Source: Lepidurus packardi (taxonomy: Eukaryota; Arthropoda; Branchiopoda; Notostraca; Triopsidae). From it: a stretch of 64,000 nucleotides of DNA. Position 1 is the stretch's first letter. Each line of letters opens with the position of its first letter. The notes below the pieces were generated by a model. The model searched no databases. It worked only from the letters and a program-made list of their open reading frames with translations, and was not told the DNA's origin. Below are positions 30,566-43,409 of this stretch, one piece after another. The translations under genes were made by a program, and so were the position numbers. The stretch is from NCBI GenBank assembly GCA_023053545.1, contig JAKZAN010000001.1:7584565-7648564 (forward strand), written 5' to 3'.

Positions 30566-30584
30566 ACACTGTTGCGACCCAAGT
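30566..30584 (+). repeat. Left target duplication and terminal inverted repeat
   Basis: ACAC followed by TGTTGCGACCCAAGT. The next 30 bases contain a perfect 18-base palindrome (30595-30612), and a second GAACTCGGG half lies further in, the same order as at the right end. Confidence 0.85.
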
Positions 30585-31121
30585 AGAGCCTCTACCCGAG
30601 TTCGAACTCGGGTAACCCAAGTTCGAACTCGGGTAGCAATATTTGACAGTAAAGTTCTCCACACCTACACAGTTTTTGCAAGTGAAATTAACAATACAGT
30701 TTATTGGTTTAGTTATCTTTAATTTGGCATTATTACCTTGGCAGTAATTTCACAACTTATTTAAATATTTATCTTCGAAGTTTACATGACAAGTTTTGTT
30801 TACAGTGGAGTGTAGACTACTTTACTTGGAGGCGTTGCATGTAGAAGGGGCTACTTAGAATTGCAGTTTACGCCACTTGTGTCGACTTTCATCACTAAAG
30901 AGTAGAGTTGTGCTTGTCACTCCTCAATTTATATGTATCATTATTTTTATTATTGTTTTTGGGGTACAGTACTTGAAAAGTTTGTTGGTAACTAATGTTC
31001 ACTCATATAATAACAGTAGCTCAAACGTATAGCATGCAGAAGTTGGATATCCAGGTATGGTTATTATAATAATAATATTGAATTACAAGTTGGAATTTAT
31101 AATTCACTATATATACCCTAC

Positions 31122-32945
31122 TTATTTATCATCAACATCAAGTAAGGTTTGCCAGAGACGAAGTAGTTCAATTTGTTTTCTTGTCAGCCATCTAAGCCTC
31201 AAAAACATATAGATGATGGCAGGGAGGGCAAATACTGTGGCGGCAGTAATCACAACAGCCCAACAGTATAGTAAAAATTGGGTCAAGAAGCTTTGGGTCA
31301 GACAGACATACGAAATTTCGTCACTCAGATTATTAAAAATAGGTTTTGAATCTTGAACTGCTTTTTCGAACAACTTGTATCTGATTTCCCAATTTGGGTC
31401 TAATGTACTTTTTTCTGTAGGTCTTCCAAAATGTCTTTGGTAATTTGCGTTAATCCTTGATGATTTGGTTTTGGGAGTTGCACAACAGGATATGGTAAGT
31501 TAAAATCTAAATCGGAAAAGATATTTTTTACGTCTATAGTGCTGGTGTGGATTGTATAATTATTAAGTTTTTCCAAGTTTGCCGGAAAGGTCCACCACCC
31601 GGAGTGAGCTGAGCAGCCATCCGGTAGTTCTAAGATGCCCACATCATTTAGCTGGACACTGGAACTCTTGCTGTAGGCTTCTGGACGTCGTTCTTCTGGG
31701 CAAGATATTGTAAGTTGCATTGGTTGAGGTATTGAATAGATCCATTTGTTTTTCCCAAGGTAATGACACCATGGCCTGCCGTCTATTCGGACTGTCTTTT
31801 TGCACAATTCCGCAATCAAGACAGTATCATTAAAGAACGCAGCATACAAGCAAGAGCGCCCATGGATGCCACGCGTGAGGGCTTTACTGGTGGAGCAAAT
31901 CTTCGCTGATCCTGTTGTACAAGTTTCTGCCAATTCTGAGGAAGTAAATTCAACATACGACTGTCTGTCGCTTGTTAAGCCGAGATAATCGTATTGTGTC
32001 ACCTGAGAAATTCCCTCCAGGTAAAAAAGTCGGTAGAGCTATTAGTTGATATAGATCAAGTGTAGTACTTAAATCTTGTAGTGGTATGTCCACGAAGATT
32101 TTCAGTGTGCCTTGGAGTGTTGCTGCTGAACGCACCCGGAATTCCTGATAATGGGTCCACATGTTCCCTGGTTCTGCCGCCTTTGTTACGACCCAGTTGC
32201 GGGATAGGTAGCGGCTTACTTCTTGAAGAATTTGCCATAGCTCTGTTGGAGGAATTATGTTTGGTGAAAGTCGTCCTGACGCTATTGTTGACAAGCCCGT
32301 GTTCATGTTATTAACGTTTTGGTGTAACCAAAGTATAATGGTACCAAGGGTATGATAAGCGTTGTCCAATTTTCGAGCAAAATTCCACGTAAACGCATAA
32401 AAATCTCCAAATTCTGAAATCACAGCTTCGAGGTCTTCAACACTACTGGCAAGGCTACTCACTGCTTTCGTAATTTTTGAAATAGCGTCCACATTTTTCC
32501 GGACCTGCAGGTACGTGCCGTTTAGTAATGTAGCCTGTTGTTCTTCTAAATGATACAGCATTCTATTGTCCTTTGTTATCCTGCTGAATTTTCGGTTAAT
32601 GTCTTCTAGATCTTTGCTGCTAAGGGTGCCAAAAAGCCAGCGCAAGACTTCACCTCCACCGTTAAGGATTCCCCGTTTTTTCCTCGGAATTAAGTTGGGG
32701 GTTGAATCTTCGTATGAAATGGCCTTCATTAGTGTCTCTTAGGTATCTCAATGTTAGGTGTCTCAAGGTACTGTTAATGGCGTCCAGTTCAATTTTGATT
32801 TGTCTATTTTCGTCGTTTCGTTTTGTTTGCATTTCTTTGATGAATTTTAGCATTGCGGTGTCGAGTTTCTCTATGCTACGTTGGCGACTGTCTGTGAAGG
32901 TCAGATGTTTGATTTGCGTTCTGTTGTTTTGCGCAGAGAAAGGGC
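31122..32945 (-). pseudogene. Decayed F-type (errantivirus/baculovirus-like) envelope fusion glycoprotein
   Basis: Read on the minus strand this resembles the class-I fusion protein of insect errantiviruses and baculovirus F. Seen: a basic furin-type site RKKR (about 32673-32684) followed at once by a Gly/Leu-rich candidate fusion peptide; heptad-like helices; a Cys-rich ectodomain from about 31.9 to 31.5 kb; one strong membrane segment at about 31.2-31.3 kb; and a short basic tail ending at 31122. A short upstream part before the furin site could be the small subunit, but no signal peptide or clear start is seen because the sequence runs into the palindromic repeats. The frame changes at least three times: near 32.70 kb, near 31.99 kb and near 31.41 kb. 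No gag, pol or LTR is visible, so it is not a normal endogenous retrovirus copy. It could be captured by the transposon or be a nested remnant. Confidence 0.75.
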
Positions 32946-33400
32946 TTTTTCTACACAATACCGAACTTAGGTTCCCCAAGTTCGAACTCGGGTAACCCGA
33001 GTTCGAACTCGGGGAGCCCAAGTTCAAGAATTCCCCATAAGCGTCATGTTTTGAGAGAGTTTTTATAAGATTTAATAGCACACTTTAACCTGTTGATGTA
33101 ATAAATTAAGTGGTTTATCTTTGTGCTGTGAACATGCTATGAGAAGGGGCTTTTTCTACACAATACCGAACTCGGGTTCCCAAAAGTTAGAACTCTATCG
33201 GTAATAGCCCTATATTGTTCAAGAATTGAGACAATATTGTAAAATTTGATTGAATAAAAATCTTGCTTATGATTTTAAAAAGTTTGAGAGACCTTTCGTA
33301 AAATTGTATAAAATAATAAGCTTATTGATGTAATAAATTAAGTGGTTTATCTTTTTGTCGTGAACTAGCTGTGAATAGTCCTTTCTCTACGCAATACTGA

Positions 33401-33806
33401 ACTTGGGCTCCCCAAGTTCGAACTCGGGTAACCCGAGTTCGAACTCGGGGAGCCCAAGTTCAAGAAATCCCCATAAGCGTCCTATTTTGAGAGAGTTTTT
33501 ATAAGATTTAATAGCACACTTAACCTGTTGATGTAATAAACTAAGTGGTTTATCTTTTTGTCGTGAACTAGCTGTGAATAGTCCTTTCTCTACGCAAAAC
33601 TGAACTTGGGCTCCCCAAGTTCGAACTCGGGTAACCCGAGTTCAAACTCGGGGAGCCCAAGTTCAAGAAATCCCCATAAGCGTCCTATTTTGAGAGAGTT
33701 TTTGTAAGATTTAATAGCACACTTAACCTGTTGATGTAATAAATTAAGTGGTTTATCTTTGTGCTGTGAACATGCTATGAGAAAGGGCTTTTTCTACACA
33801 ATACCG
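33401..33806 (+). repeat. 203-base tandem repeat, two units, left arm
   Basis: Each unit starts with ACTTGGGCTCCCCAAGTTCG, contains paired palindromic halves around GGGTAACCC, and continues with a TAATAAA(T/C)TAAGTGG segment. The period is 203 bases (33401 to 33604). Related single copies lie at about 32965-33023, outside the arm. Confidence 0.85.
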
Positions 33807-34247
33807 AACTCAGGTTCCCAACTTTGAACTCTATCGGTTGCCCTATGTTCAAGAATTGCCTGCAAATGTCTTTTTTTAATATAATGGTGCAATATATACC
33901 AAATGTGTGTATATTTTCAAAAGTTTGGTTCACTCGGGTATGTTCACTAAATGGAATGCCTATATTTATTAAAATTTCATTTGAACTTATGTAGCAGACA
34001 AAGCAAATAAATGCTTAGCATCGAAATTGAAAATATAATATTCGTATATGTGATGTAAAGGGAAGGGAAGTTAAGGGGATTCGTAAATGTGAAGAGTGCG
34101 CAGTGCATTTAAGGACAAGGATTTCCCCTATTGGTCGGAATATAACAATATAAGTACAGTCTATATATTCAATATAAGTACTTGGGATGACCGTATTCCA
34201 CTTCTCATTTTACTGTGGTCTTACTAAGAGCGCGAAGCTTGTTTACC

Positions 34248-34714
34248 ATGGAAGGTATATCCTCCCATCTCCTGTGAAGGCGTTTGCTACCAATTTCGTT
34301 TTTTCTTTTCTTACAGGAAAATGCAATTTAATTGATAATTGTGAAGAGTGTCTTGGTGATGGCGACTGTGCCTTCATGGTTGGACCCAACGACGGGGACA
34401 TCGTCTGTTTCAACGAAGATACGGGGCACCCGCTGGCACCCTACTATGCTCGTATTGAGCATTGCGGTAGTAATACATTTTCTTTTAATAGAATATGCTA
34501 AATTCGATTCTTTAGATGAAAGTACCTACATTCGAGTGGCTACAAGCCTCGTCGTTCTTGCAGTTTGTGTAATTTGCGTACTTGGAGTTATGGTTTACTG
34601 GTACGCTCTGAAATGCTTTAATTACAAAACTTTATCCTAATGATTTGTCGTTATAGTAAACGACGGCGTAATCGACGGAATGAAATAGTATATGAAAATT
34701 ACTCATGCTTTTGA
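34248..34714 (+). CDS. Small single-pass membrane protein with PSI-like domain (left-arm copy)
   Basis: Exons 34248-34254, 34317-34466, 34492-34600 and 34657-34714 join in phase to 107 residues; the first exon is only the ATG and four further bases, so the true 5' exon, perhaps with a signal peptide, may be missing. The product has a Cys-rich module CNLIDNCEECLGDGDC, like a PSI (plexin-semaphorin-integrin) fold, then a transmembrane helix (SLVVLAVCVICVLGVMVY) and a basic stop-transfer KRRRNRR tail with YENY before the stop. The layout recalls PTTG1IP-type proteins, but the match is to architecture only. Spliced reading gives a much more sensible tail than the unspliced frame, which supports the introns. 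Confidence 0.6.
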
Positions 34715-35454
34715 TCCTCTTCATGCTTTTGTGTTTCCGGTTTTTGTAATCCAGTTTACGATTTGTAGTTTAATCGGACATTGTATGCTTTTGATTTTTT
34801 CAATGGTTTTTATTGTGCTTTTATCATATTTTGTGATTTTTCTCAATTTTTATGTCTAAAAACTTTGAATACATAAGTTAACCTTGTTTTTATCTATCTT
34901 GTCTGTTCGGTGAAATGTTTTAACAATTTACGCAGCTCCTTTTCCGAAATAAATTTTCCGTTTATTTACTCTTTTCGTTACCTCCTGACAACACAAATTT
35001 TACACGTTTTCCGAAGGTTTTGCCTTCGAAAGGCTTGGAAAGATACGGTCCGAAAGGGTTGGAAAGCAATGCTATATCGGTTCTTCCGTCCCCCAGCAAC
35101 CATCGTTGCATCCCAGCACTCAACCATCGTCGTTCTGATTTGAGGTCACACAGTGCAAACATTGTCGGCTTTTCAAAATTTAGCTTTCGTCGCTGTTTCC
35201 ACAAGTTCTTTTAAAATTGCGAGCGAAGAGCGATTTCGCTCGCCAATTTTGAAGACCGATTTTTAGCTCTGGGCGCAAGTACAGCTCGTCTGACCTGCTG
35301 CATGTGTGCTTCGGTTGTGTTGTGTTGAGTGTTGCTCTTGCCTCTATATTAATGTGATAGTGAGATTAAACTTGTCTTTAAGTTGTTGTCCTTTCTTTTT
35401 TAGTTATCATGTTGCTTGCAGTTTGCTAATTCTGCTCCTTACATTAAGTTTAAA

Positions 35455-38400
35455 ATGCAGGGTCTTGGTCCTGTGGATCGCGAGAAATTTGATTTAGTGG
35501 TACGACAAAAAGCCAGAGTTCGCAACTCGGTGATTATCACCAATGAGAAATATCAGAAGATTCTTGCCGAATTGCATAAACAAAAAGAAGGGGCGACGTT
35601 AAGTAATGAAATAAGTAGAAAATTTATTTTGCAAACTGACGAAAGCGGTGAGGAATACGTTGCGTGCTTTACTGAGCCGTCCCAAAGTATGGCAAAAGGG
35701 TACGCGCGTCAACCTTTCAAGCGCGTCGTCCGGGCTGAAGAAATGTACGATTACATCAAGAAGGTGCACGAAAATGACACGAATCATACGTCACCTAGGG
35801 CGGCGTTTCATTATGTAAGTTAATTAAGCAATATATCAAGCTTACCATACTATAACATTGTTTTAGGTGCAAGCGTATTACTATGGAGTAACCCGTTTTT
35901 TAGTTGAAGAATATACCCAAATGTGCCCGTACTGTGCAACCAAAAAAGTCCAAACAAATGCAACTCCCATGAGGCACGTGGTTGCCAGTGATGTCATGTC
36001 ACAAGGACAGGTAAGTGGTCCTGAGAAGATACGGGGAAAAGCTTACAGATTTTATTTTTCTTTGGTAGCTCGATCTGGTCCTTCTGCCGAAGAAGTCGGT
36101 TGTCGACGGGTATCGCTACATAGCCCAGTATGTAGACTTGGCGTCCCGTTTCCATATTCTATGGCCAATGCGCAAAAAAATGGGACGGAAATCTATGAAG
36201 GCTTACTGAGATACGTGTTCAGCGTGTTTGGACCCCCAAAAAGGCTCCAGACAGATAATGGAACTGAATTTCGGGATCAAGTAATACTGTTAACATGAAC
36301 ATGAACGGATACCAAAGGAAGATTAATATTATTTCACAGGCGTTGGCAGCGGGCTTAAGTAATTGGCCCATACAACATATCTTTGGAAGGGTACGACATC
36401 CCCAAAGCCAAGGAGTAGTTGAGCGGGCCAACGCTGAGCTGAAGAAATTGCTTCGTAACCGCACGCTGACCGACAAGCAACAAAGAACCTGGCTCTACTG
36501 GCTGCCAGTAGTTCAGTGTAATATTCTTTTGATTAAACAATGAGGGATTTGGGTTTGTAATGGAATAATGTTGTATTTTATTTTCAGATCAAATGAATAC
36601 GAGAAGATCACAACCCATTGGCCAACTATCTTCATTCGCGGTCATGTTTGGGAAAGCTCCGGTACCTTATGGAAGACCGGAACTAAACCCAACACCAGCT
36701 GCTGATTATACCACTACGGAACTGCCATTGGGTCCTGATTCAGAAGATAGCGAGGAAGACGGATCAGAACCTCTTCCTACTCTGTCAGCGGACTTCATTT
36801 TTCTAGATACCCTTGATGCTGTAAGTTTCTTCCAATGATGATGTTGTTCCTTCCAATGTTCCTGAGCTATCACTTGAAAAATTATCTGTTTCGACTCAGG
36901 AATTGGAACCTGAAGAGGACCCTTTTGCGCTAGCTTCCACGTCAACTGCCAATCCGGTCATCGAAGCCTACTGCGGTGGAGATGTGGTATGCCTGAAATC
37001 GCCGACTCAGGAGTTAATGGAACCTGAAGAGGACCCTTTTGCGCTAGCTTCCACGTCAACTGCCAATCCGGTCATCGAAGCCTACTGCGGTAGAAGTGGT
37101 GTGATCTGCACGGATGTTGAAGTCGCTGAAACGGACTCAGAGGTACTACCTGCGTGCACTTTTCCACCAAGAAAACAAAATTACTGCCATGGTTCATCAT
37201 ATTTAATTTTTTTATGTATTTTTATTTTAGCTTGACGGTGTTGCACCACTAAACGAGGATCGTCTGGCCATCTTCCGCTTTGTCCGCAGCCAAGCGGCAG
37301 CAGCATTATCCCATAGCCATGAAACTATGAATCAAAAGGCTGGGTTAAATCCGTGCAAACGCACAACCAAGCTAGAAGTAGGGAACCACGTTACCGTGTT
37401 AATTCCCACCAAAGACCGGACAAGCTTGGAGAGCAGCCGCCTTCCAGGTATAGTCATCAGAGTGAGCGGTGATACATACCGAACCTACACCGTCCAGTCG
37501 TTCCACGGGGTACTTCGGGAGTCATATACGGAAAATCAATTAGAACTTTATGAACAGAAATTTAAGCAACTCTACCATTGTAAAAGTTACGAAGTTATAC
37601 CGCTAAGGACGGCGGTTCGACTTTTTTACGGCGGTAAAAGCAAAGTAGACATTTGCGAGTGTAAAAGTGCTTGTGAAACTAAGCGGTGCAGGTGTAACCG
37701 AACGTTAAAAAATTGCACATCGGCTTGTCATGGTGGAAGGTACTGCCAAAACCAGGCGCTTTCTGAAACAAGTATGGCAGTTACACAATTATACTTTCAA
37801 GCTCTGAGGTTTAAAGTAAACGAAGTGATCGGCTCCGCATATAACCTTGCTGGTAATTTCTTCACTTTGTTTTGGGGCGAAGTGGGTAAGGTTTTGTTTT
37901 TCTTTTAGGAGATGTGAACTCTGACGATTCGAACGACTATTGCAAACCTGAATATCACGAACCGTACAGATCCATTCCGGTAGATGAAATGCAGGTGTTG
38001 TCGGAGCAAGGACTACAATATCGTTTGAAAGTCTCTGAAGACCATTTTTGGGATCAAGCTGGTAGGCACATAAATTATTTAAGAGAGATACAAGGCTTAA
38101 AGTCCCGACTTATTTATTTATGATCCAGATGCGACTTCTTGTACCTGCCGTAAGATGTGTTTGAAAAAATTTTGCAAGTGCATGCAGGCCTCACGGAGAT
38201 GTACCGAACTTTGCCATGGCGAACAAGCTTGCAACAATGCCGAAGCACGAGAATTAAGTGAGTTGCAAATGAATATAACAATGTCAAACTTATTCTGCGG
38301 TACAGAACATCAAGCAAAAAAATCTTCGAATGGGTGTGACTGCATTGAAGGCTGCGATGTGGCAGAAGATTGTTCCTGTCGAGCATTCTGTGATATGGAA

Positions 38401-40230
38401 TGCACTTGCAGCAAGAACTGTTCAAAAAGTAAATCAATTTTGTGAATATATCATTTAATCCCGTTCCATACAACAATATATAATTACATGTAGGGAAAGG
38501 CCTCCCAACCCAGAATAACCGAATCATGTGTGACTGCACGGAGTCATGTATAAACAGTAAGGAATGTGAATGCAAGAAGGCTGACATTCCGTATTGGTCG
38601 GCTTTGTGCCATAACGGAAGGACTTGTGATCTTATCGATGAGAACATGGGTAAGTTTATTACCATACTGCTGCAAAGAAAAACGCGAAGATGACTACTCT
38701 AATTATTCAAAACAGAAACACAAGCGGGACCACGCGATGACCAGTCAGCGATTCAGTCCGCTGAACCACAATTCACTGATGCAGACATGGGTACGCATTT
38801 TGATTCTTCCTCCTAAATTGCTGATTGATTTTTACTTTTCAATCATTTAAGCAGTCAACGAGGAGGCTATCCCTATGGAAGACGAAACACAGCCCTTAAC
38901 TGAGGATGATTTATTTAAAAAATTCAACTGCCAATGCAAAGATAATTATTGCGCACCAAAATTCTGTCCTTGTCGAACGACCGTTAATTTGCTGGATCCA
39001 ACTGACCTCTCCCGTACAATAAAATCTCTTCGATGCAGCACGACATGTCATAGAGGACGATTATGTTCAAACCAAGTTGTACGAAAAGGTAATTTTATTG
39101 AAGAATTCAAACTTACCCGATTAAGATTTAATTACTTTTTGCTCGACAGTTACTAATAAGTTGGAGACGCTTTTTCATTCCACGAAACTCAAGCATTTAC
39201 GCACGGTGCTACCGTCGTTATATGCTGCATATGCATGGATTCAGGCAAACATGCATCACTTTGAGGAGCATGTTACCATCCCCTACGTAAGGTATTCAAT
39301 GGCACAAATTCCTCACCCTAAAATTCCTTTTATAGTTGGAACAAAAATGGAAATTAAACAATAAAATGGAAAAGCGTATTAAGGAAACGGGGGCCTTGGA
39401 TTACCCCACTGTAATCCTGGATCGTGATTTGGATGATTACTGGTACCGCTATAGAATTATTGCTCACACCCCGGATGATTTAGAAATTCTGCGCGATGCA
39501 AAGATCTGTCTTCTTTGGGCTTCCAATGCTGTGACAATTGAAGCTTCGACTAACCGAAGTCCATACAAATTGCTCGAGTATCAGGTAGAAAACAAGACAT
39601 CTCTGCTATAACCTAACCTAAACCATTACTTTTCGGCAGCTAGCGATGGATTCCAAATCTAAGGCTGGGAAGCAGCAGTCGTCTCATGCTACTACTGTCC
39701 TAAATTGGGCCGTAACACAAAAGGAACATGGCAATCGCACAACGGTACGTGCGACCAGTTTTAAACATCCTTCGGTTCCGGCGTCGAGAAAATTGCGAGC
39801 CGGACCACTAAAGTTTGAAAACATGCTGCCTACAGAAAAGACGCACTTAGTGTTATCGTGGCTTCTGAAGGAATCGAGTCTGGACAAAGGAATTAAAAAA
39901 CTAGAAAAGGCCGACAATAGCGATCTAAAATTAGATTCCCGGGCTATCTCGGATGGAGTTCTTGACCAGCGGGTTAACAAAGAATTTAACCGAGTATATA
40001 CGTACCTCACACCGCAAGCCAAGATTACCGTAAAAAAGTTCATCGCAGAAAAGCGCGGGAAAAAGCTATTTTGCTGTCCTGCATGCAGTCTACCGGCGAA
40101 AAACAAAACTGTACAGTGTGACCGATGCTTGTCATGGTTTCATTACCTTTGTGCAACGAATTTTCACATGGCGGAGCACAAGGATAAAGACTGGTTTTGT
40201 GGAACTTGTGGAAACAGCGACGAAAGCTAA
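35455..40230 (+). CDS. Ginger/KRBA2-type DDE integrase with CXC repeats and C-terminal PHD finger
   Basis: Sixteen exons (first 35455-35814, last 39640-40230) give about 1,280 codons with one frame break. Order: N-terminal helices; zinc-binding-like CPYCATKK segment; DDE core with Asp in LDLVLL (exon 36069-36280), Asp in QTDNGTEF, and Glu in HPQSQGVVERANAELKKLL; the VQYQMNT and FGKAPVPY blocks; an acidic linker with an exact internal duplication; a GPY/F-like module (VGNHVTVLIP to LPGIVIRVSGDTYRTY); several CXC modules such as CECKSACETKRCRCNRTLKNC and CRKMCLKKFCKC; and a PHD finger (CCPACSLPAK, CDRCLSWFHYLC, WFCGTCG). It cuts and joins the element ends by inference. Exon 36069-36280 is one base short in a run of seven A at 36154-36160, between the first and second Asp. 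The stop lies 29 bases inside the right inverted-repeat arm. Confidence 0.85.
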
Positions 40231-40695
40231 ATTTTGAAAAGCCGACAATGTTTGCACTGTGTGACCTCAAATCAGAACGACGATGGTTGAGTGCTGGGAT
40301 GCAACGATGGTTGCTGGGGGACGGAAGAACCGATATAGCATTGCTTTCCAACCCTTTCGGACCGTATCTTTCCAAGCCTTTCGAAGGCAAAACCTTCGGA
40401 AAACGTGTAAAATTTGTGTTGTCAGGAGGTAACGAAAAGAGTAAATAAACGGAAAATTTATTTCGGAAAAGGAGCTGCGTAAATTGTTAAAACATTTCAC
40501 CGAACAGACAAGATAGATAAAAACAAGGTTAACTTATGTATTCAAAGTTTTTAGACATAAAAATTGAGAAAAATCACAAAATATGATAAAAGCACAATAA
40601 AAACCATTGAAAAAATCAAAAGCATACAATGTCCGATTAAACTACAAATCGTAAACTGGATTACAAAAACCGGAAACACAAAAGCATGAAGAGGA

Positions 40696-41162
40696 TCAAA
40701 AGCATGAGTAATTTTCATATACTATTTCATTCCGTCGATTACGCCGTCGTTTACTATAACGACAAATCATTAGGATAAAGTTTTGTAATTAAAGCATTTC
40801 AGAGCGTACCAGTAAACCATAACTCCAAGTACGCAAATTACACAAACTGCAAGAACGACGAGGCTTGTAGCCACTCGAATGTAGGTACTTTCATCTAAAG
40901 AATCGAATTTAGCATATTCTATTAAAAGAAAATGTATTACTACCGCAATGCTCAATACGAGCATAGTAGGGTGCCAGCGGGTGCCCCGTATCTTCGTTGA
41001 AACAGACGATGTCCCCGTCGTTGGGTCCAACCATGAAGGCACAGTCGCCATCACCAAGACACTCTTCACAATTATCAATTAAATTGCATTTTCCTGTAAG
41101 AAAAGAAAAAACGAAATTGGTAGCAAACGCCTTCACAGGAGATGGGAGGATATACCTTCCAT
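40696..41162 (-). CDS. Small single-pass membrane protein with PSI-like domain (right-arm copy)
   Basis: Mirror copy of the left-arm gene, at positions that sum with it to 75410, with identical predicted residues: Cys-rich PSI-like module, one membrane helix and a KRRRNRR tail. Both copies point toward the integrase gene. Both being intact while the envelope and integrase are broken may reflect conversion between the arms. Confidence 0.6.
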
Positions 41163-41749
41163 GGTAAACAAGCTTCGCGCTCTTAGTAAGACCACAGTAA
41201 AATGAGAAGTGGAATACGGTCATCCCAAGTACTTATATTGAATATATAGACTGTACTTATATTGTTATATTCCGACCAATAGGGGAAATCCTTGTCCTTA
41301 AATGCACTGCGCACTCTTCACATTTACGAATCCCCTTAACTTCCCTTCCCTTTACATCACATATACGAATATTATATTTTCAATTTCGATGCTAAGCATT
41401 TATTTGCTTTGTCTGCTACATAAGTTCAAATGAAATTTTAATAAATATAGGCATTCCATTTAGTGAACATACCCGAGTGAACCAAACTTTTGAAAATATA
41501 CACACATTTGGTATATATTGCACCATTATATTAAAAAAAGACATTTGCAGGCAATTCTTGAACATAGGGCAACCGATAGAGTTCAAAGTTGGGAACCTGA
41601 GTTCGGTATTGTGTAGAAAAAGCCCTTTCTCATAGCATGTTCACAGCACAAAGATAAACCACTTAATTTATTACATCAACAGGTTAAGTGTGCTATTAAA
41701 TCTTATAAAAACTCTCTCAAAATAGGACGCTTATGGGGATTTCTTGAAC

Positions 41750-42230
41750 TTGGGCTCCCCGAGTTCGAACTCGGGTTACCCGAGTTCGAACTTGGGGAGC
41801 CCAAGTTCAGTATTGCGTAGAGAAAGGACTATTCACAGCTAGTTCACGACAAAAAGATAAACCACTTAGTTTATTACATCAACAGGTTAAGTGTGCTATT
41901 AAATCTTACAAAAACTCTCTCAAAATAGGACGCTTATGGGGATTTCTTGAACTTGGGCTCCCCGAGTTTGAACTCGGGTTACCCGAGTTCGAACTTGGGG
42001 AGCCCAAGTTCAGTTTTGCGTAGAGAAAGGACTATTCACAGCTAGTTCACGACAAAAAGATAAACCACTTAGTTTATTACATCAACAGGTTAAGTGTGCT
42101 ATTAAATCTTATAAAAACTCTCTCAAAATAGGACGCTTATGGGGATTTCTTGAACTTGGGCTCCCCGAGTTCGAACTCGGGTTACCCGAGTTCGAACTTG
42201 GGGAGCCCAAGTTCAGTATTGCGTAGAGAA
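41750..42230 (-). repeat. 203-base tandem repeat, three units, right arm
   Basis: Three copies of the same unit as in the left arm (palindromic cores near 41755-41815, 41955-42015 and 42160-42215). The third copy accounts for the whole length difference between the arms. Confidence 0.85.
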
Positions 42231-42589
42231 AGGACTATTCACAGCTAGTTCACGACAAAAAGATAAACCACTTAATTTATTACATCAATAAGCTTATTAT
42301 TTTATACAATTTTACGAAAGGTCTCTCAAACTTTTTAAAATCATAAGCAAGATTTTTATTCAATCAAATTTTACAATATTGTCTCAATTCTTGAACAATA
42401 TAGGGCTATTACCGATAGAGTTCTAACTTTTGGGAACCCGAGTTCGGTATTGTGTAGAAAAAGCCCCTTCTCATAGCATGTTCACAGCACAAAGATAAAC
42501 CACTTAATTTATTACATCAACAGGTTAAAGTGTGCTATTAAATCTTATAAAAACTCTCTCAAAACATGACGCTTATGGGGAATTCTTGA

Positions 42590-43390
42590 GCTATATGTTT
42601 ACCCAATAGTTCGAACTTATGCTGGGTAGCTCAAGTTCAGTATTATGTAGAGAGAGCACTTTTTCCATCGCATTTTCAGAACAAAAAGAAACCAGTTAAT
42701 TAATTTCATCAAGTTTATTATTCTATCAGATGTATCGATTTTATTTAATACGCGAATACAAAGAGACCGAGCAACGCGGTCTCCTTTTCTTAACAACAAC
42801 AAAAAAGTTTATTAACACTTTATTCACTATTTTAACTGCATGAACAATACATGAAACGCAACGGTGTAATCACTAAGAAAGGGTTACATTCACAAGTACA
42901 AACTTGAATAGAAAGTAGGAGATTTGACACAACGAAGGTCTATGTTTGGATGTCGAATGAGAAGTTTTAAGCATCCTTCGATTTCTATGAAATATATAAA
43001 TACAAAATACATTTAAAATGAATCTGTGTCTGTCTAAGTTAAGTAACTTCACATAAGTTCACTAAATCTTTTCCGTTAAAAGAGATACCATTTGTTTATA
43101 TTTTTGTTCACGGGTTGAATAAAGAAAGAATAACAATTTTAACAAGCTTTATACCGGAGAGAAAATACAATTAACAGCGACTCCAACGGATCATGTTTGC
43201 AAGTAGATAAAGTCACATCCAAAGCTACACCCTTCTTTTGGAAAATGCCACGCCTCTGCAAAATGTTCACGTCAAATATAAAGTTCATACTTTTAAGCAT
43301 CGAACTTGGGCAGATGCCTCGCGTCCCAAGTTCAGTGTCTACCCAAGTACGAACTTGGGCTGCCCGAGCTCGAACTCGGGCAGATATCGA
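42590..43390. other. Right non-coding end of the 12.8-kb element
   Basis: About 800 bases with no supported gene. At 43300-43395 a set of CCCAAGTTCG/CGAACTTGGG and CCCGAGCTCGAACTCGGG palindromes lies just inside the terminal repeat, in the same order as at the left end. The rest is AT-rich. Confidence 0.6.
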
Positions 43391-43409
43391 ACTTGGGTCG
43401 CAACAACAC
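43391..43409 (-). repeat. Right terminal inverted repeat and target duplication
   Basis: ACTTGGGTCGCAACA followed by ACAC, the exact counterpart of the left end. Confidence 0.85.

What the first reader, a model, noticed from the sequence alone, without database searches (positions are those of the whole stretch)
30570..43405. A cut-and-paste transposon that carries a viral-type fusion envelope gene
Within one pair of 15-base terminal repeats and a 4-base ACAC duplication lie a Ginger/KRBA2-type integrase, an F-type envelope gene with furin site and membrane anchor, and a duplicated small membrane-protein gene. Envelope genes are known in errantiviruses and in some Maverick elements, which are linked with transfer between species; I know of none in a Ginger-type element. 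If the pieces belong together, this is a virus-like DNA transposon that may once have spread between cells or hosts. The alternative is a nested remnant.
Basis: partly seen in the sequence, partly recalled or inferred. Interest (0 to 1): 0.93.

Follow-up and report, generated by a model that had tools for sequence, protein, structure and literature searches.

The report
Ginger-type transposon carrying a broken envelope gene
A cut-and-paste DNA transposon in an animal genome picked up part of a retrovirus-type envelope gene and carried it to many places, but that part looks incomplete and broken, so it is more likely a passenger than a tool for infection.

Summary
The element is real: 12,836 bp between perfect 15-bp inverted ends, with an ACAC duplication. 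Of 20 elements with both ends, 19 have a perfect 4-bp duplication (18 different sequences). An F-type (Baculo_F) envelope sequence lies in the same order and orientation in 18 of 20. The two without it are a diverged relative with other cargo and a 213-bp remnant. So the envelope belongs to the mobile unit. Nine of the 18 also carry the integrase region; nine do not.

The virus-like reading is not supported. The envelope lacks the N-terminal part (signal peptide region, most of F2). Its F2 remnant and F1 are out of frame in 14 of 14 copies read, and differences among copies show no purifying selection (4 synonymous, 27 nonsynonymous, p = 0.07 against neutral). Its nearest relatives here (about 33% identical) belong to gag-pol-env Ty3-type retroelements.

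The transposase has introns and a DD35E pattern (Ginger2-like), plus CXC and PHD domains. Best reading: a gene-capturing Ginger2-like family that took up a truncated env before it amplified. Eight literature searches showed no such case.

The parts
30566..30569 (.). left 4-bp target-site duplication ACAC
30570..30636 (+). left terminal inverted repeat (15 bp perfect, 67 nt at 82%), with a 21-bp repeat containing GTTCGAAC
31122..32738 (-). F1 part of an F-type envelope gene (furin-type site, Baculo_F, C-terminal hydrophobic stretch), broken into three frames in this copy
32665..32905 (-). probable remnant of the F2 C-terminal helix, out of frame with F1; upstream of it the sequence is the family's repeat
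   Evidence: the F2 assignment is by eye
33021..35208 (+). left long inverted arm with 203-bp tandem units
34178..34640 (+). small cysteine-rich membrane-protein gene, copy 1 (PSI-like by eye; no Pfam hit)
35455..35812 (+). integrase/transposase exon 1
   Evidence: by eye, GT-AG intron follows
35867..36009 (+). integrase exon 2 (CPYC zinc-finger-like stretch)
36068..36280 (+). integrase exon 3 with the first D (QLDLV) and second D (TDNGTEF); the frame changes between them in this copy
36340..36543 (+). integrase exon 4 with the catalytic E (HPQSQGVVERAN), rve_3
37231..37908 (+). cysteine-rich C-terminal coding piece
38101..38445 (+). CXC (Tesmin/TSO1-like) domain piece, E 2.6e-4, just under the curated cut-off
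39643..40230 (+). PHD-finger coding piece
40202..42592 (-). right long inverted arm with 203-bp tandem units
40770..41232 (-). small cysteine-rich membrane-protein gene, copy 2
43339..43405 (-). right terminal inverted repeat
43406..43409 (.). right 4-bp target-site duplication ACAC

Best explanation
[quoted passage not shown] An intron-containing DD35E integrase recognises the ends and inserts the element with a 4-bp duplication. Internally deleted copies without the integrase region move in trans. The envelope sits between the left end and the inverted arms as a passenger, copied whenever the element moves, and is decaying. Shown: ends, duplications, multiple sites, fixed place and orientation of the envelope, its incompleteness, retroelement-type relatives. 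Inferred: the capture event, mobilisation in trans, and recognition of end repeats by the CXC domain.
For: 18 of 20 two-ended elements have the envelope in the same order and orientation, 15 of these 18 at 1.37-1.48 kb from the left end and three (G, O, T) with extra DNA before it. 19 of 20 have a perfect 4-bp duplication, 18 different sequences. The envelope lacks positions 1-135 of the Baculo_F profile and the first ~145 residues of a complete relative. F1 and the F2 remnant are out of frame in 14 of 14 copies. All 15 copies compared with the longest natural frame have a frame-shifting indel and 6 of 15 a new stop. 31 unique substitutions: 4 synonymous, 27 nonsynonymous, neutral expectation 28% synonymous, p = 0.07. 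The best-matching other envelope group (about 33%) has gag, pol and env, and 14 envelopes of the next two groups have a reverse transcriptase about 3-5 kb upstream on the same strand. Relative U shares the left end (86%) up to about 31091, 30 bp from the envelope's stop, and then carries PAN-domain genes instead.
Against: The test for selection is weak (31 changes, p = 0.07). No donor closer than 33% was found, so the capture step is not seen directly. F2 could in principle be restored by an unrecognised exon; I ran no signal-peptide or splice predictor. In Q and S a nested insert puts a hydrophobic stretch before the F2 remnant, though F1 is still out of frame. One element (B) has no 4-bp duplication. 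Target sites fit the published Ginger2 RTATAY in only 1 of 19.
Confidence: 0.82

Rival explanations
1. A decayed virus-like DNA transposon: the ancestor had a complete envelope and used it to spread between cells or hosts; today's copies descend from a late, broken form.
For: The envelope is the cargo kept in all nine deleted forms that lost the integrase; the furin-type site and F1 frame survive; other cargo genes also look like surface proteins.
Against: No copy read has the N-terminal part; the truncation is shared by the copies read. The diverged relative U has no envelope. No capsid-like gene was recognised among the pieces scanned with Pfam, but not every frame was scanned.
Confidence: 0.07
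2. Chance nesting: the envelope is a separate element inserted once in the window copy.
For: The envelope is bounded on both sides by family sequence (about 31.1 and 32.9 kb).
Against: It is in 18 of 20 two-ended elements at independent sites; no flanking LTR-like repeats. As a description of the ancestral capture it is compatible with the best explanation, not as a one-off.
Confidence: 0.02
3. Two elements travel together: the short envelope-bearing form is the real unit and the palindromic integrase core is a second element inserted in it.
For: The core lies between long inverted arms, is missing in nine of 18 elements, and is flipped relative to the envelope in D and F.
Against: Junctions in the short forms fall at different registers of the 203-bp units, as expected of internal deletions; no single empty site with its own duplication was seen; the arms and the outer ends share the same 21-bp motif; flips fit recombination between arms.
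Confidence: 0.09

Closest known systems
Ginger2/Tdd DNA transposons (Bao et al. 2010, PMC2836005; passages and section 6 read)
   Same: 4-bp duplication, TGTNR ends (TGTTG), inverted ends of 67 nt within the stated 50-180 bp, DDE integrase without reverse transcriptase; one known family is from the nematode Trichinella
   Different: 12.8 kb against 2.7-6.7 kb in the paper's table; long palindromic arms, CXC and PHD pieces, envelope and membrane-protein cargo; no RTATAY target preference
Ty3-type retroelements with an F-type env (errantivirus-like)
   Same: the envelope is Baculo_F-type; relatives here lie beside gag and pol
   Different: here no pol or gag, no LTRs, 5'-truncated, moved by a DNA transposase
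Endogenous nimaviruses with a Ginger2-like integrase (PMC10871703; passages read)
   Same: a Ginger2-like enzyme tied to viral genes between inverted ends
   Different: there a large DNA virus acquired the transposase; here a small transposon acquired one broken viral-type gene
Pack-TYPE / gene-capturing DNA transposons (PMC8903248, PMC13317346; search listing and abstract starts only)
   Same: host or foreign gene fragments copied between transposon ends, often without the transposase
   Different: cargo is a retroviral-type env, host is an animal, superfamily is Ginger
Maverick/Polinton with envelope-like genes; Teratorn (PMC10175614, listing only; Maverick envelope facts recalled)
   Same: transposon plus viral gene
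   Different: no viral replication or particle genes recognised in the pieces scanned here; the genome search for DNA polymerase B did not complete

Membership tests
Ginger2 | 4-bp target-site duplication | tested here: met
   19 of 20 two-ended elements
Ginger2 | ends TGTNR with 50-180 bp inverted repeats | tested here: met
   TGTTG; 67 nt at 82% (definition)
Ginger2 | preference for RTATAY targets | tested here: not met
   1 of 19 sites
Ginger2 | DDE core and H2C2 zinc finger | tested here: inconclusive
   D, D and E motifs 35 apart by eye across introns; rve_3 E 8.5e-4 below cut-off; no Pfam H2C2 hit on exon 2
Ginger2 | position in an integrase tree, absence of GPY/F and YPYY | not tested
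   no reference integrases were at hand; two homologue searches with later exons gave nothing
F-type (Baculo_F) envelope | profile match | tested here: met
   E 2.2e-20 for the longest natural frame, profile 136-577 of 609; solved 'fusion protein' chains 9w4c/9w4d E 1.5e-9
F-type (Baculo_F) envelope | complete protein: signal peptide, F2, cleavage site, F1, anchor | tested here: not met
   N-terminal part absent, F2 remnant out of frame in 14 of 14
LTR retroelement | LTRs, gag, pol around the envelope | tested here: not met
   no bracketing repeats; no RT hit at the window place among the 150 best of 1235 candidates
Maverick/Polinton | DNA polymerase B, capsid, packaging genes | not tested
   search not answered

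The most novel reading that the evidence does not exclude
A lineage of Ginger-type transposons that repeatedly collects surface-protein genes (env, a PSI-like membrane protein, PAN proteins) and once had a complete fusion envelope, that is, a capsid-less or capsid-borrowing DNA element that used membrane fusion to move between cells or hosts.
Probability: 0.05. Interest if true: 0.92.

Novelty: new variant of a known kind. Interest (0 to 1): 0.5.

Why it matters
Envelope genes turn genomic parasites into viruses. This family shows one concrete first step outside retroelements: a cut-and-paste DNA transposon can take up an env gene and multiply it to about 20 places. It also shows the trap in that inference: a fixed env in a mobile element need not work. 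Relatives in other species would show whether the step ever went further.

Tried and rejected
Rejected: one-off nesting; an LTR boundary at 31.1-33.0 kb; a missing F2 exon recognisable by similarity in the window. The protein-database search with the envelope frame gave three distant proteins (22-26%); two with transposase pieces gave none. Rfam: no match in the window. The CXC-binds-TTCGAA idea: 19 copies against 5.4 expected (largest shuffle 13 of 100), but the wider TTYRAA is not enriched (50 against 42.7), many copies sit in repeated 203-bp units, the remnant Z has none, and the LIN54 paper prefers an A-T pair in the centre, which TTCGAA lacks; kept as a lead only. The COX1 search did not identify the host. 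Against a simple picture: envelope group 24 gave no Baculo_F hit, the 33% relative gave no solved-structure hit, B has no duplication, and right-end fragments V, W, X have no envelope.
Full report
Setting. The window is C1:7584565-7648564 of an unnamed 108.6-Mb, 344-contig genome. Host genes with short introns flank the element, so it is a eukaryote, by inference an animal; the species was not identified.

The element. It runs from 30570 to 43405 (12,836 bp). The 15-bp ends are perfect and occur nowhere else in the window. ACAC flanks both sides. Order: left end; envelope on the minus strand (31122-32738, with a remnant to about 32905); left arm; transposase region; right arm; right end. The arms are nearly perfect inverted repeats and hold 203-bp tandem units and one copy each of a small membrane-protein gene.

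Copies. The 15-base end occurs at 59 places at up to one mismatch, 47 of them exact, against 8 for the reversed control. Left-end, right-end and envelope searches (the two end searches scored 40 of 52 and 40 of 87 candidates, so counts are lower bounds) give 20 elements with both ends, which I call A to K except L and M, N to T, U and Z. Perfect 4-bp duplications flank 19 of 20, with 18 different sequences. B, at least 99.9% identical to the window copy, has none. R contains an assembly gap and a partly doubled interior.

The envelope in the copies. All 81 candidates of the envelope search were scored. The envelope is in 18 of the 20, always in the same orientation relative to the ends. In 15 of 18 it lies 1.37-1.48 kb from the left end. 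In G, O and T more DNA lies between; in G this is nested insertion with a reverse transcriptase, in O and T the extra DNA was not read. U and Z have none. Of pieces with one end, L, M and Y have it and V, W, X do not. A few weaker left-end matches (C1:4070878 90%, C1:2390970 89%, C1:2351641 83%, C5:5851998 77%) have no envelope hit near them and were not fetched.

Two size classes. Nine of 18 also have the transposase region (A-F, O, P, R); M has it too but its right end was not found. Nine do not (G, H, I, J, K, N, Q, S, T; T judged only from the absence of hits). The junctions of the short forms fall at different registers in the 203-bp units, which fits internal deletion. In D and F the core is flipped relative to the envelope, which fits recombination between the arms.

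Age. On 551 bp of left-end sequence outside the envelope the family members are 97.1-100% identical, and U is 84.7-85.8% identical to them. So the family is young.

What the envelope is. The longest natural frame matches Baculo_F with E 2.2e-20 but only from profile position 136 of 609, and matches two solved fusion-protein sequences, 9w4c and 9w4d, at E 1.5e-9. A complete relative in this genome matches the window only from its residue 146; the alignment shows the missing block. Upstream of the F2 remnant lies the family's own repeat; in Q and S an insert of about 630 bp with TG...CA ends lies there instead. F2 remnant and F1 are in different frames in 14 of 14 copies where both are seen (L ends at a contig end). 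Against the longest natural frame, 15 of 15 copies have a frame-shifting indel and 6 of 15 a new stop (Y is only a 367-nt piece). Among 15 copies there are 4 synonymous and 27 nonsynonymous unique differences from that frame; a neutral model expects 28% synonymous, p = 0.07. So no purifying selection is seen, with modest power.

Where it came from. Envelope groups at about 33%, 28% and 24% identity occur elsewhere in the genome. A 33% member has gag (Retrotrans_gag E 8e-13), a pol piece (36% identical to another pol over 565 positions) and an open env. Fourteen envelopes of the other two groups lie about 3-5 kb downstream of a reverse transcriptase on the same strand (that list shows the best 150 of 1235 candidates). 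LTRs of these elements were not examined. On the shared columns the transposon's envelope is 29.7% identical to the first group and 21-22% to the others; in a seven-sequence tree the split separating these two from the rest has 86% bootstrap support. No near donor was found.

When it was captured. U shares the left end with the family up to about 31091, 30 bp before the envelope's stop, then carries three PAN-like genes instead; one of three passes the Pfam cut-off. The PAN genes belong to a gene family with a cluster on C6 at 9.95-10.02 Mb. A further relative with 48% identical integrase at C2:836998 and an 82% similar right end has no envelope hit within about 20 kb. So the envelope was gained in this lineage, or lost in the relatives; gain is simpler. 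Taking up genes seems to be a habit of the wider family.

The transposase. The pieces read as exons separated by introns of about 55-60 bp (by eye). The first D, the second D and the E are present, with 35 residues between the last two. In the window copy the frame changes between the two D motifs. Further downstream come cysteine-rich pieces, one matching CXC (PF03638, E 2.6e-4, 21.6 bits against a cut-off of 23.5), and a PHD finger (PF00628, E 5.8e-6). Whether all these form one protein is not shown.

How it works, with marks. Shown: movement as a unit between these ends, with 4-bp duplication. Inferred: the integrase does it; deleted forms borrow it; the CXC part may help to recognise the repeated TTCGAA motifs (19 against 5.4 expected, but see the reservations under tried and rejected). 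The membrane-protein gene is open and nearly unchanged in the six copies compared (window and B-F), with a frame-shifting indel in fragments X and W; its function is unknown, and its likeness to PSI-domain proteins is my reading, without a Pfam hit.

Known or new. The Ginger2 description (passages and section 6 of PMC2836005) fits in duplication, ends and enzyme type but not in target preference. Ginger2-like integrases in endogenous crustacean nimaviruses (PMC10871703, passages) are the nearest published link of Ginger with viral genes, in the opposite direction. Eight searches of the open library listed no Ginger element with an envelope; the word envelope does not occur in the held main text of PMC2836005. 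Most subscription papers are not in that library.

Verdict. The envelope is a truncated passenger in the copies seen. New variant of a known kind: gene capture by a DNA transposon, with a retroviral-type env as cargo.

Noticed in passing
L030 (G000:C3:2804842-2811814): A diverged relative with the same kind of ends and an AGCA duplication carries three PAN-like genes instead of an envelope; the wider family seems to collect genes.
   Followed up: partly
L048-L049 (G000:C5:11269800-11279800): A gag-pol-env retroelement with an open F-type envelope of 716 codons, related at about 33% to the transposon's envelope.
   Followed up: partly
L028 and L029, within the elements next to the envelope: Two copies share an insert of about 630 bp with TG...CA ends and a short duplication, probably a solo LTR.
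   Followed up: partly
window 33325-33771 and 41630-42330: 203-bp tandem units in both arms contain the same 21-bp motif as the outer ends.
   Followed up: partly
G000:C2:7191717-7204552: A copy at least 99.9% identical to the window's has no 4-bp duplication, perhaps by recombination.
   Followed up: no
G000:C3:9732620-9732832: A 213-bp remnant with both ends and a GAAC duplication: the family makes miniature elements.
   Followed up: partly
G000:C52, C214, C43: Contigs with uninterrupted COX1 frames, perhaps bacterial; other COX1 matches with several TGA codons lie on large contigs and may be nuclear copies of mitochondrial DNA.
   Followed up: no
window 36904-36980 and 37018-37094: A 77-bp direct repeat, 99% identical, inside a coding piece of the transposase region.
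   Followed up: no
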